A DNA stretch of 64,000 nucleotides, taken from positions 2,232,001 to 2,296,000 of the forward strand of contig NW_006917093.1 of NCBI RefSeq assembly GCF_000516985.1, given 5' to 3'. Numbering within the stretch: position 1 is the first letter of the stretch; the number at the start of each line of letters is the position of its first letter. Of the stretch, positions 34,674 through 39,374 are shown piece by piece. This DNA is from Pestalotiopsis fici W106-1 (taxonomy: Eukaryota > Ascomycota > Sordariomycetes > Amphisphaeriales > Sporocadaceae). Both the position numbers and the translations under genes were made by a program. A model generated the notes under the pieces. That model saw nothing but the letters and a program-made list of their open reading frames with translations, searched no databases and was not told the origin of the DNA.

Positions 34674-36629
34674 TCACGACTCTCGCTTTCCCAGCCCAAA
34701 ATCCCTGAGCCACTCGGGCGCGCGTTGCCGTAATTGTAGACCAAGGCTACTATCAGTGCCCGACCTAGACTCACTCTCTTCAGCCTCATCATTCCAAACT
34801 ATCTTTCTGAATCCCATGACTATGCAAAGTTTTCCATTCTCGGTGGTCCAGTAGACATGTGCTCCGAAGCTGATCCGTAAGGATATTCGGTACAGCGATG
34901 GTATGTGTTGTTCTAGCATCACAAATGGAGGAGATTCCTGCTTTATCAGAACACGAAACGCTGCGTCCTGGACATGAGAGTCCGGATCCTCCAGGTGCGT
35001 TGCAATGGTGAGTAGAGTATCAATGTCAAGTCGAGTCCAAGTGCCAAGTGCCTGCAGAGCCTCTAACCGATTCCACGACGAATCGTGCTCGTGATGCACC
35101 ATGATTGCTTTGATGACTTCATTCGCAGGCTGAGGTTGGTTTCGGAACAATCTGCAAATTATATGATCCAGACCAGCCATGCCTTTATCAAATCCAAACA
35201 GCCCAGCGATAGCGCAGAGAACGTCACCGTCAAGTTCAGGCCATTTCACCAGCCCTTGGAGAAGTGTCCTCAGGACGTTAAGGGAGGACCCCCGCTTGTC
35301 CATCAATCGCCTCGCAATAGCTTTCATTGCATTGCCCTTTGGTTGAGGTCGGTTCATAAGTGCCATTGCCGCTTGATCCTCCACAGCATTATCTCTATCC
35401 CCCAATTTATCAGCAATGGTGCACAGAACAGTGTCGTTAAGTTGAGGCCATGCCCGAAGGGCGCAAAGTGCATCGATTTGTACAGATACGTTCCACTGAT
35501 CGTCTTTGAGATGCGCCACGACAAGGTCAACAACCTCAACATCAGGTGCAGACCAAAAGCAAACTGCCTTGAGAACTGCAGATCGATTCGATGCGTCCTC
35601 ATCGTGAAGCCGAGCTATGATTATATCGCGGGTGTCGTCATCAACTTGTGAATGGGTGATGAGGGCCCTGATGGCCTCTTCCAAGGCCTCTTCGTTATCA
35701 ACTCGCGCTCTAGTTTTGATCGCATCGAGGACACTATGATCAAGTTGCCGCCGGCTTCCAAGTGTTTTGATTGCTTGAGACCGCACATAGCAATCATGAT
35801 GCTCAAGTTGAACCGCGACAATGTCGAGAATCTTATCACTAATCTGAGACCAGTTCTCAAGTGCCCTTAGAACGTCTATACGGACGTAATTATTTTCGTG
35901 ATCAAGTTGAGTTTTGATCACATTGAAAATCCCGTCCTCAGACTGAGGCCAGACCCCCAGAGATTCAACAATGTGTCGCCGACCGAATACTTCTTCGCTC
36001 CGGTCAAGCAACGCTATCATCTTTTGGAAGACATCATTGCTACGCTGGGGCTGGCTTCTAAGTACTTCGAGAGCTGCGTCCCTGACATATTCGGTTGTAT
36101 CGTTGAGCCGCGTCGTGATAGACTGCAAGACGTCGTCGTTGAGGTGGTGTGCAAGAGCCTCAATGCAAGCAATCCGGATTTGTGGTCTGCCGCCTTGGAG
36201 TTCGTGCACAAGAAAGTCGACGAACTGATCATCCAGCCGAGACTGTTTCCCAAGTAATTTGATAGCACTGCATCGCACTGAAACATGCATTTCTGGATCC
36301 AAAAACTGTGTTTCGACAGCATGAAGCACTCGAGCTTCCAGCGCCGTGAATTTTGTGAGTGTGGAAATAGCTTCATACTGGACTAGATTGTCGTCGTCTT
36401 CCAATCGCGCTATGATAGCATTGAGGGCGTTGTCATCCAAGTTACCTTGTTGCCCTCCAAGTATGGCAAAAATGGCACGCTTGAGGTCATGCCGACGACG
36501 AAAATCAGCGTCGTCGCTAAGCCAACAGCACATCATATGAATGGCCTCAATGGACATTATCGGGCGATGCTGTAGTGATTGGGCAAGAGTGAGCCTATCG
36601 TCTATGGAGGCTGACTGCAGTACACTCAT
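34674..36629 (-). CDS. HEAT-repeat frame of the NLR-like locus
   Basis: A 651-residue frame from an ATG at 36629 whose first base is shared with the stop codon of the upstream hydrolase-NACHT frame (TAATG). It consists of about sixteen tandem HEAT-like repeats of roughly 31 residues, with recurring patterns such as VLxAIxxRLxDxD, then VRxxAxxAL, then W/RPQLDD. A C-terminal non-repeat segment of about 80 residues contains YWTTENGKLCIVMGF. In NLR-like proteins, such C-terminal repeats sense ligands and hold the NACHT in check. I think this is the sensor half of the same protein: an intron with donor GTCATA at 36685 and acceptor CAG at 36615 (71 nt, phase 0) would fuse the frames, removing the ATG. 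If that intron is not used, it is a separate HEAT protein or a broken gene. Confidence 0.8.
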   Translation of the reverse strand: MSVLQSASIDDRLTLAQSLQHRPIMSIEAIHMMCCWLSDDADFRRRHDLKRAIFAILGGQQGNLDDNALNAIIARLEDDDNLVQYEAISTLTKFTALEARVLHAVETQFLDPEMHVSVRCSAIKLLGKQSRLDDQFVDFLVHELQGGRPQIRIACIEALAHHLNDDVLQSITTRLNDTTEYVRDAALEVLRSQPQRSNDVFQKMIALLDRSEEVFGRRHIVESLGVWPQSEDGIFNVIKTQLDHENNYVRIDVLRALENWSQISDKILDIVAVQLEHHDCYVRSQAIKTLGSRRQLDHSVLDAIKTRARVDNEEALEEAIRALITHSQVDDDTRDIIIARLHDEDASNRSAVLKAVCFWSAPDVEVVDLVVAHLKDDQWNVSVQIDALCALRAWPQLNDTVLCTIADKLGDRDNAVEDQAAMALMNRPQPKGNAMKAIARRLMDKRGSSLNVLRTLLQGLVKWPELDGDVLCAIAGLFGFDKGMAGLDHIICRLFRNQPQPANEVIKAIMVHHEHDSSWNRLEALQALGTWTRLDIDTLLTIATHLEDPDSHVQDAAFRVLIKQESPPFVMLEQHIPSLYRISLRISFGAHVYWTTENGKLCIVMGFRKIVWNDEAEESESRSGTDSSLGLQLRQRAPEWLRDFGLGKRES

Positions 36630-39374
36630 TAGAGGTGCCTCTGGGAACTCCGTTTGGAGTAGTTTGCTTCATTTGTGAATATGACTTCCAAGTTCAGCCA
36701 ATCGGCAAACTTGTCTTCCAGCTTTTTTCTTTCTGTAATGAAAGCTCCCTCTTTCGCTTCTCCCGATACCTCGCTCAAGCAATGCATTAGTAGTCGCTGA
36801 TGGACGGGGCCGACGAGGTCAAGTGGTTCCTGACCAATCAGTTGGAAAAGTTCAAGCGTGAATGTCTGGTTGTTGGTGCTGAGTAGACCAGCGACGAAGC
36901 GCCAGAAAATATCGTAACTGGCATCGTATTTGTGAAGTCTCAAGAAGCACTCCACACTCTCTGAATAGTTGTCACTCTTCAAAATCAATGGCTTTCGAGC
37001 CTGCCACTGTCGAACGAAATATCTCGCCGCAAAGTATTCTTGAAACGTCAAGTGCAGAAAGTGGTAGACGGGGCTATTTGCTGAGGGATTCGACGTACGC
37101 AGAAAGGAGGTACGCTGGAGCACGTTGTCAGGTGAGAATTTCGAGTTCATGTGGGAAAACCTGTCAAAAGTTTCCATGCTGTTTGTTCTCGTGAAGTTGA
37201 TCATATCATAGGCCATGCCAGTAAAGGCTAGCCCCTCAAGAAGACAGACCTCATCGGGGACAAAATCTTCGATGCGTCTCAGTGGGAGGTTTTGAAGCTC
37301 CCCCTTTTCTATGATATCTCCATTATTGTTCTTCTTCCCCAAGGCAAGGATATCTTTTGTCCAAAGACTCCCGGCAATAGCTTGATAGATACCAGTCATG
37401 GTTTGTAGTTGAGATCCAATTGATACACTACTCTCGTCAGTGTCCCAAATGTAACAGAGGGCATCCAATTGAATAGGTATTCGGACAAGGTCGCGGAGAA
37501 GTTTGTGTTGCTGGAGTACCGAATGAAGGCGCTTGACCTTCTCAGGTTTCTCGGCGAAGACGGTCTTGACGTATGAATCAATTTGGTCTGGGTAAAATCC
37601 AATGGTTTCGAGTTCCAGGTCGAAATTTTGAACCGGCAGGGAGATTTGAGGTCGGGAAGTCACAATAAGTGCGGGCATTTCTAACAGGGATCCAAGCAAT
37701 TTGGACATACTGCCATCGCCCGATTCCTTGTACACTTCGTCCAGGCCGTCAAGTATGAAAAGGGTTTTCTCATACTTGCTTGCCTTGAGATATTTCCAGA
37801 ACTCTTTAGCAATTATTTCGCCGTCGTCAAGCTGCGAGAAATACTCTTGGTGAAACATTCCTTCTAGATTACAATCCCGATTGGCCAGTGTCTTGAGGTT
37901 TCTTAGAGGGATCCAGAGAATCCGGTCGAACAAGGCGTTCCACAGGCCATGCTCCTTGAAGTCGTGGACAAACTTCTTGCATAATGTAGACTTTCCAACG
38001 CCGGCTTGTCCTCGAATGAGAATTCTCCTAGGCGATGACCCACGATTATTGCCGTTTTTGTGCTTGTCGAAGAGGTCCGCTATTTTGATACGTCCATGGC
38101 CTTCACGACTTGTACTTTTGAGCTGACGGCGTAAAGATACTTCCGCAGGTTGTGTTCCGCCCTCTGCGGGTTGTTTGATGATGGCAAGATTGATGTAGCA
38201 CGTCTCCACTGATACTCTCTTGGTGGAGATACGCTCAATCTCAAGCATCTGAGTGGCGTAGTGTTGATTTTTGATATGGCTGTCTGCCCTTTCGTGATAC
38301 CGATCCTCCCGGATCTTTTCAAGAATCCTCTCAATTTGCCCAACGACAACACCGTAATCCCCGTCGTTAGGGCTGGGGAATTTGTTCATCTGAACGTGAG
38401 TACGGCTCAAGGGCAAACGACGATCACGTATTATCTCTAGAGATCCAGAGCTTTCTTCGACGATCTGAAAACAGTTAATGAAGTTCCTACCATGATACAT
38501 GGACGAATATACGGACCGGTTTCTTTTGAGATAGGAAATCAGGTAGCCAAGGAAAGATCTTCCGTGGCAGGCTCGACATCCCTGTCTCATAGAAGGTAAC
38601 CATACACTCAACGTACCCATCAACTCTACAAACTGTAGTAAAGTCTCCGACAAGGTCCTCTAGCTCACGGCTTGGCATGACCTCTTTCACTAACTTCGAA
38701 ACCCTTTCATTCCGCAGGAAAGCCCATAATCTGAGACCAGGCTCAGCCAACGCGGCAACATCGCGGAACGAAGTACCGCGAAACGGCGTTGCAAGAAATA
38801 CAATACCGCGTACAGCTGTCTTAATATTATTGTGATTGAAACGCGCCATAACAAGCGCCTTCATCAATATGATGCCACCTAGACATGACGCCACGAAGAG
38901 GATTGGCCGTGCCTGAGTTTTGGCGGGAGCTGATTGCCTGAGCTGTGCTTCGATGCCTGCAAGTAAAAGCCGAGCAGACTCATCAAACATCTTTTGACTA
39001 TAGGCTGCATGCTCGAAGAGGTTCGCCGGCCAGTCACACGTGAAGATGCGAGCTGATCCAACTCTACTAGGAAGCATGAAATTATCAGCGAGCCAGTTGA
39101 CGTCTCCCGTCTTCGACTTCCAGATCCACGTATCTGGCGATCTCGTGTCCAAGCCATGGACGGCAATGATGTCGATATCGGTTTCGATTTCTTTCCCTCG
39201 TGGAGGATGAACTTGTACAAGGCGAACAGATCGTGGGCTTGGGCTTTTGGTGGCCGACTCATTGATGGGATACTTGTCTGACGACTGTGACTGTGAAATG
39301 GACAAAGCAATTCTGAGCGAAGACCAGAGGAGGCAGACAAGGACGACTACGAGAACCAAAGCAAATGGACCCAT
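36629..39374 (-). CDS. NLR-like protein: alpha/beta-hydrolase and NACHT
   Basis: Exons 39374-38517 and 38464-36629 give 897 residues; the 52-nt intron has donor GTCCGT, branch TTAAC and acceptor TTTTCAG. Residues 5-20 form an N-terminal membrane anchor. An alpha/beta-hydrolase domain (about 65-285) has AVHGLDTRSPDTW and FVASCLGG, related to the lipase-like SesB domain of fungal NLRs; the usual GHSLGG nucleophile serine is replaced by Cys164. A NACHT domain follows, with Walker A GQAGVGKST (438-446) and Walker B LFILDGLDEV (521-530), then a YHFLHLTFQEYFAARY winged-helix segment. In fungi such proteins oligomerise on non-self or pathogen recognition, and the N-terminal enzyme domain triggers programmed cell death. 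The frame stops at TAA directly overlapping the HEAT-frame ATG; see that entry for the possible fusion to about 1525 residues. Confidence 0.85.

What the first reader, a model, noticed from the sequence alone, without database searches (positions are those of the whole stretch)
36600..36700. Stop-start overlap TAATG between NACHT and HEAT-repeat frames of one NLR-like locus
The hydrolase-NACHT frame stops at TAA and the HEAT frame begins at an ATG overlapping it by one base. Such a long, intact HEAT array directly after a NACHT domain makes two unrelated genes unlikely. Three readings are possible: a 71-nt intron (36685-36615) with the weak donor GTCATA and a branch-like CTAAT near the acceptor, which is phase 0 and fuses the two into about 1525 residues; translation reinitiation at TAATG, giving separate effector and sensor chains; or a frameshift. 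Regulated retention of the weak-donor intron would switch between a full receptor and one lacking its sensor, a potentially novel control.
Basis: partly seen in the sequence, partly recalled or inferred. Interest (0 to 1): 0.75.

Follow-up and report, generated by a model that had tools for sequence, protein, structure and literature searches.

The report
Frame-broken fungal NLR receptor gene
A fungal immune-receptor-like gene that its relatives encode as one continuous protein is cut into two reading frames here by a small change in the DNA (or in the assembly), and the neat-looking stop-start overlap is most likely a by-product rather than a new control switch.

Summary
The TAATG overlap is real: TAA 36631-36629, ATG 36629-36627, minus strand. 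The gene is PFICI_04821 of Pestalotiopsis fici W106-1, a hydrolase-NACHT-HEAT NLR. The overlap marks neither a gene border nor, on the evidence, an intron. The HEAT frame is open 13 codons upstream of the ATG, and those codons encode an E-F-P-E motif. E and P of the motif are invariant in 40 of 40 aligned relatives, while the ATG falls on a variable residue (Met in 1 of 85). All 5 own-genome paralogues examined read NACHT into HEAT in one frame; 112 of 119 listed relatives hold both halves in one protein. The proposed 71-nt intron would delete that motif, and is one of 32 GT-AG pairs that could join the frames. Best reading: a small frame-changing indel near 36650 in an ancestrally continuous exon. 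It is probably real and recent; an error in the 454-based assembly is the main rival. One paralogue is cut by an 11-kb RIP-like insert, so decay in this subfamily is not unique. UAAUG-coupled reinitiation is not excluded, but nothing specific supports it.

The parts
38517..39374 (-). Exon 1: alpha/beta-hydrolase (sesB-like) effector domain
   Evidence: ORF 38487-39374; Pfam Abhydrolase_6 E=0.0013, below cut-off; paralogues at 47-60% identity; exon end from gene model P0003
38465..38516 (-). Modelled 52-nt intron between hydrolase and NACHT (GTCCGT...ATTAACT...TTTTCAG)
   Evidence: Gene model P0003 reads ...SQKKP|IVEESS...; sequence; paralogues also change frame or carry stops here
36629..38464 (-). 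NACHT half of exon 2, ending at TAA 36631-36629
   Evidence: NACHT E=5.2e-16, NLRC4_HD2 E=1.5e-8; gene model P0003 / PFICI_04821, 897 aa, ends here
36632..36668 (-). Stretch where both frames are open; homology passes from the NACHT frame to the HEAT frame inside it
36639..36650 (-). Conserved E-F-P-E motif in the HEAT frame, upstream of the ATG
   Evidence: E 84/84, P 83/84; E and P 40/40
36627..36631 (-). TAATG stop-start overlap (the finding)
   Evidence: 5' context CTA, C at -3
34674..36668 (-). HEAT half, open frame of 664 codons, with the C-terminal segment that the nearest relative P0004 also has
   Evidence: HEAT_2 E=4.2e-28, 5 stretches; sequences
36615..36685 (-). Proposed 71-nt intron (rejected)
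   Evidence: One of 32 frame-joining GT-AG pairs; would remove conserved residues

Best explanation
The locus is one member of a known fungal NLR family: alpha/beta-hydrolase effector, NACHT switch, HEAT-repeat sensor. NACHT and HEAT were ancestrally one uninterrupted exon. A small frame-changing indel near 36650, within the 37 nt where both frames are open, threw the NACHT frame out of register. It therefore runs into a TAA by chance about six codons later, and that TAA happens to overlap an internal methionine codon of the HEAT frame. The expected product is a truncated hydrolase-NACHT protein of 897 residues without a sensor, or no stable product; the HEAT half is stranded. The lesion looks recent. 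Shown: shared frame in relatives, conserved residues on both sides, no other stop in either half. Inferred: that the change is real in the living strain, and that function is lost.
For: Five own-genome paralogues (L026-L030) carry Walker A, the junction and the start of HEAT in one open frame without stops. Of 119 relatives listed besides the locus itself (at least two are the paralogues P0025 and P0027), 119 match the NACHT half and 112 match both halves in one protein. The nearest three (62-63% identity, one named Neopestalotiopsis sp. 37M) read through the junction with E-F-P-E 18 residues after a conserved W. In the window the stretch from that W to the motif is 50 nt; the commonest spacing in relatives is 18 residues = 54 nt (67 of 116; 17 residues in 1 of 116; no motif found in 5). 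My inference: a net 4-nt difference fits a real deletion better than one miscalled base. The HEAT half is not faster evolving than its sister clade: branch 0.42 against a sister stem of 0.59, and closer than the three sisters to 8 of 8 other proteins, so the lesion is young or artificial. The RIP indices of the gene do not indicate RIP.
Against: Only one assembly was available. It was built from 24.5-fold Roche 454 reads with Newbler (PMC4320822 passages), a method known (recalled) for indel errors, so the lesion may be artificial. An undecayed HEAT half would also fit a gene still in use by other means. No transcript data were available. 7 of 119 relatives did not match the HEAT half, and 2 of these stop near the same junction. 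Both halves have lost some residues invariant in the other 11 proteins (NACHT 10 of 167, HEAT 3 of 18), but the sister P0004 loses as many when treated alike (12 of 173 and 2 of 18, against 11 of 172 and 3 of 19 here), so this does not tell decay from ordinary divergence.
Confidence: 0.68

Rival explanations
1. The same frame change, but only in the assembly: a base-calling or consensus error in 454 data; the living gene is continuous.
For: 454 GS FLX at 24.5-fold with Newbler, Illumina used for scaffolding and gap filling; HEAT half open throughout and not accelerated.
Against: The longest homopolymer run in the 37-nt overlap is 3 bases. The W-to-motif distance is 4 nt short of the common spacing, so a single missed base would also need the 17-residue spacing seen in only 1 of 116 relatives.
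Confidence: 0.25
2. After the frame change the HEAT half is still made by coupled termination-reinitiation at UAAUG, giving separate hydrolase-NACHT and HEAT chains that might assemble.
For: UAAUG is a known coupled stop-start (review PMC5972666 passages); reinitiation on bicistronic mRNA is reported in yeasts and filamentous fungi (PMC10352335 passages); the HEAT half is open for 664 codons and not accelerated.
Against: The ATG column is Met in 1 of 85 relatives and conserved residues lie upstream of it; ATG context is poor (C at -3); no UGGGA core in the 150 nt upstream; 112 of 119 listed relatives have both halves in one gene model; a chain starting at the ATG would lack the E-F-P-E motif and the start of helix 598-607 of the P0016 model.
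Confidence: 0.04
3. A 71-nt intron (36685-36615), possibly regulated, fuses the halves.
For: GT-AG present, phase 0; CTAAT at 36632-36628, 13 nt from the end of the acceptor.
Against: It would delete the stretch aligned to residues 582-606 of P0016, including E and P invariant in 40 of 40 and most of helix 598-607, mean pLDDT 83-91 in these blocks. The 5 paralogues have no stop or frame change here. Donor GTCATA; 31 other pairs would also join the frames. The modelled intron of this gene has GTCCGT, ATTAACT and TTTTCAG.
Confidence: 0.01
4. Programmed ribosomal frameshifting joins the two frames.
For: Frames overlap by 37 nt and homology passes from one to the other inside the overlap.
Against: No X XXY YYZ heptamer in 36700-36629; the 5 paralogues need no such site.
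Confidence: 0.02

Closest known systems
Fungal N-NACHT/HEAT NLRs with sesB-like alpha/beta-hydrolase effector (e.g. Podospora Pa_6_7270, sesB-like/NACHT/TPR(HEAT), PMC4986451; N-NACHT/HEAT class, PMC12258605; passages seen)
   Same: Domain order hydrolase-NACHT-HEAT; NACHT and HEAT continuous in relatives
   Different: In this assembly the NACHT-HEAT exon is interrupted by a frame change, giving an 897-residue gene model without HEAT
Broken NLR family members in fungi (Podospora NWDp1-3 pseudogenes, PMC1805685; passages seen)
   Same: Loss of function in a member of an expanded NLR family
   Different: NWDp1/2 were inactivated by RIP and NWDp3 apparently by an inversion; here a small indel and no RIP indices
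UAAUG coupled termination-reinitiation (influenza B segment 7; SART1 by title in the reference list; review PMC5972666, passages seen)
   Same: Same pentanucleotide
   Different: No UGGGA core within 150 nt upstream and the AUG is an internal codon of an ancestral single frame

Membership tests
Fungal hydrolase-NACHT-HEAT NLR | NACHT domain with Walker A | tested here: met
   PF05729 E=5.2e-16, over cut-off; GQAGVGKS in the NACHT frame
Fungal hydrolase-NACHT-HEAT NLR | N-terminal alpha/beta-hydrolase | tested here: inconclusive
   Abhydrolase_6 E=0.0013 but 19.9 bits, below the 26.3 cut-off; similar to the hydrolase exons of paralogues, 47-60%
Fungal hydrolase-NACHT-HEAT NLR | C-terminal HEAT array | tested here: met
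   HEAT_2 E=4.2e-28, 5 stretches
Fungal hydrolase-NACHT-HEAT NLR | NACHT and HEAT in one polypeptide | tested here: not met
   Two frames in this assembly; met in 112 of 119 listed relatives and 5 of 5 paralogues. The locus is therefore filed as a broken member
Fungal hydrolase-NACHT-HEAT NLR | NACHT of the NAIP-like (N-NACHT) type | not tested
   NLRC4_HD2 match E=1.5e-8 is suggestive; no tree of NACHT types was made
Spliceosomal intron at 36685-36615 | Removed segment is non-coding and lacks conserved residues | tested here: not met
   Contains the E and P invariant in 40 of 40
Spliceosomal intron at 36685-36615 | Spliced reads | not testable with these tools
   RNA-seq GSE60046 exists but is not held
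UAAUG termination-reinitiation | Overlapping stop and start codons | tested here: met
UAAUG termination-reinitiation | TURBS motif 1 (UGGGA) upstream | tested here: not met
   None in 150 nt upstream; described for the calicivirus and influenza B cases
UAAUG termination-reinitiation | Second chain starts at that AUG | not testable with these tools
   Needs protein data; the conservation pattern argues against it
Programmed -1 frameshift | Slippery heptamer in the overlap | tested here: not met

The most novel reading that the evidence does not exclude
The frame change created a working two-chain NLR: ribosomes ending at UAA restart at the overlapping AUG and make a free HEAT sensor from the same mRNA as a hydrolase-NACHT effector. 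The undecayed HEAT half would then reflect continued selection, making this a newly born split immune receptor.
Probability: 0.03. Interest if true: 0.7.

Novelty: new member of a known kind. Interest (0 to 1): 0.15.

Why it matters
It shows how a stop-start overlap can look like a regulatory device when comparison with relatives points to a frame-changing indel in an ancestrally continuous gene. PFICI_04821 should not be read as a genuine short NLR without a sensor. If the lesion is real, it is a young loss-of-function allele in a family with at least one other decayed member in the same genome. The split-receptor reading, though unlikely, is cheap to test with one reporter or one resequenced amplicon.

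Tried and rejected
Intron: rejected on conservation, on the paralogues and on the count of alternative GT-AG pairs. Programmed frameshift: no slippery heptamer. RIP as the cause: indices of the gene are like those of the window, and RIP makes point mutations, not indels (recalled). Relaxed evolution as a dating test: not seen relative to the sister clade, which makes the lesion recent or artificial but cannot tell which. Literature: searches (Pestalotiopsis, NLR, NACHT, heterokaryon incompatibility; 53 papers with 3 of 4 terms, 8 listed; fungal NLR and intron retention; 56 papers with 5 of 6 terms, 12 listed) showed, by title and start of abstract, nothing on this locus; PMC5485727 and PMC4518210, which name Pestalotiopsis once each, were not opened. 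Pfam scan of five neighbouring ORFs gave nothing at E 0.001. The structure model of relative P0016 was used only to place the junction; no fold search was run. A HEAT-only match on C1 (1108844-1109875, with stops in one piece) was not examined.
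Full report
Observation. The minus strand reads TAATG at 36631-36627, the stop of the NACHT frame overlapping an ATG of the HEAT frame by one base. Pfam gives NACHT (5.2e-16) and NLRC4_HD2 (1.5e-8) in the first frame and HEAT_2 (4.2e-28, five stretches) in the second; the upstream ORF is a weak Abhydrolase_6 match (0.0013, below cut-off). 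The window is C3:2232001-2296000 of a 51.7-Mb, 20-contig genome. The homology search names the locus PFICI_04821 of Pestalotiopsis fici W106-1, with a gene model of 897 residues that ends exactly at this TAA (P0003). A separate database gene call for the HEAT half (P0001, 627 residues) starts 24 codons after the ATG.

The ATG is not a gene start. The HEAT frame is open from 36668. Its 13 codons before the ATG read SKLLQTEFPEAPL. Of the 112 relatives that match the HEAT half, 85 align from before the ATG. At the motif, E is E in 84 of 84 and P is P in 83 of 84, whereas the ATG column is Met in 1 of 85. In an alignment of 40 relatives, chosen by me from the 119, E and P are invariant in 40 of 40. 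The conserved W and following residues of the NACHT frame lie just before. Homology thus passes from one frame to the other inside the 37 nt where both are open.

Relatives are continuous. The own-genome search with the NACHT half found five paralogues (C11 two, C10, C7, C5). In each, one open frame of 859-1449 codons holds Walker A, the junction and the start of HEAT with no stop. In one search the script's motif pattern missed L029, but the printed stretch shows the motif in the same frame. Of 1314 proteins passing E 1e-3 (7987 candidates scored), the best 120 were listed. Excluding the locus itself, 119 of 119 match the NACHT half and 112 of 119 match both halves in one protein; 104 are strictly in order and in 8 the two local alignments overlap by 1-11 residues. 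The 7 without a HEAT match include two Canariomyces models that stop 18 and 39 residues after the W.

Intron. The 71-nt pair is one of 32 GT-AG pairs of about 40-250 nt that would join the frames in 800 nt. It would remove the stretch aligned to residues 582-606 of relative P0016. These include the invariant E595 and P597 and most of helix 598-607, which in the structure model (mean pLDDT 82; 83-91 in these blocks) I read as the first helix of the HEAT array. The modelled intron of this gene, between hydrolase and NACHT (38516-38465, 52 nt), has GTCCGT, ATTAACT and TTTTCAG.

Reinitiation and frameshifting. UAAUG coupling is described for viruses (PMC5972666, passages; a retrotransposon case by title in its reference list), and reinitiation on bicistronic mRNA is reported in yeasts and filamentous fungi (PMC10352335, passages), so the mechanism is possible. 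Here there is no UGGGA core in the 150 nt upstream, C at -3 of the ATG, and no sign that the ATG was ever a start. No slippery heptamer lies in 36700-36629.

Nature and age of the lesion. From the conserved W (36700) to the motif (36650) the window has 50 nt. Relatives have 18 residues (54 nt) in 67 of 116 and 17 residues in 1 of 116; 3 of the 119 had no alignable W and 5 no motif by the pattern used. A net 4-nt difference argues mildly for a real deletion over a single missed base. Against this, the assembly rests on 24.5-fold 454 reads (PMC4320822, passages), and no second sequence of the strain was available. The HEAT half is open for 664 codons and not faster evolving than in its sister clade: branch 0.42 against a stem of 0.59, and it is closer than the three sisters to 8 of 8 other proteins (11 relatives chosen by me). 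Residues invariant in the rest are lost at a rate like the sister P0004's (NACHT 11 of 172 here, 12 of 173 there; HEAT 3 of 19 and 2 of 18), although several more distant proteins lose fewer in the NACHT half. RIP indices of the gene resemble the window's. The change is therefore recent or artificial.

Context. The C11 paralogue PFICI_13574 is itself cut. Its 1071-codon frame runs out just inside a 240-bp repeat; a second copy of that repeat (87% identical, same orientation) lies 11.3 kb on, the stretch between has GC 0.20, and the missing C-terminal HEAT part follows at C11:1945144-1945932. RIP indices in that stretch are strong (TA/AT 1.19, (CA+TG)/(AC+GT) 0.31). I infer an old LTR-type element; no target-site duplication was established. 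The genome paper reports 494 pseudogenes and RIP, and Podospora has NLR pseudogenes (PMC1805685, passages). A broken member is therefore ordinary in kind.

Verdict. A member of a known NLR family, broken by a small frame change (real 0.68, assembly error 0.25). The TAATG overlap is most likely a by-product. The boldest reading not excluded is a newly born two-chain receptor by UAAUG reinitiation (0.03). Interest 0.15.

Noticed in passing
L026, L033, L034 (G000 C11:1933372-1945175): Paralogue PFICI_13574 is interrupted by an 11.3-kb, GC 0.20, RIP-like stretch between 240-bp direct repeats (87% identical), LTR-element-like, with no open frame of 130 codons inside; the C-terminal HEAT part of the gene lies beyond it.
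   Followed up: partly
P0097, P0112 (Canariomyces notabilis): Two gene models of one species stop 39 and 18 residues after the conserved W of the same junction, so NACHT-only models ending at this place occur elsewhere too.
   Followed up: no
L028 (G000 C7): The HEAT array of this paralogue holds a run of about 100 N and changes frame across it, probably an assembly gap in repeats.
   Followed up: no
G000 C10:2405915-2406304, C13:742549-743073, C17:83225-83422: Further matches to the hydrolase effector domain with in-frame stops: introns or decayed copies.
   Followed up: no
G000 C1:1108844-1109875 (L015, L017): HEAT-only match to the HEAT half, one piece with three in-frame stops; no NACHT match beside it was listed.
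   Followed up: no
window 36557: The database gene call for the HEAT half (P0001) starts at a later Met, not at the ATG of the TAATG.
   Followed up: yes
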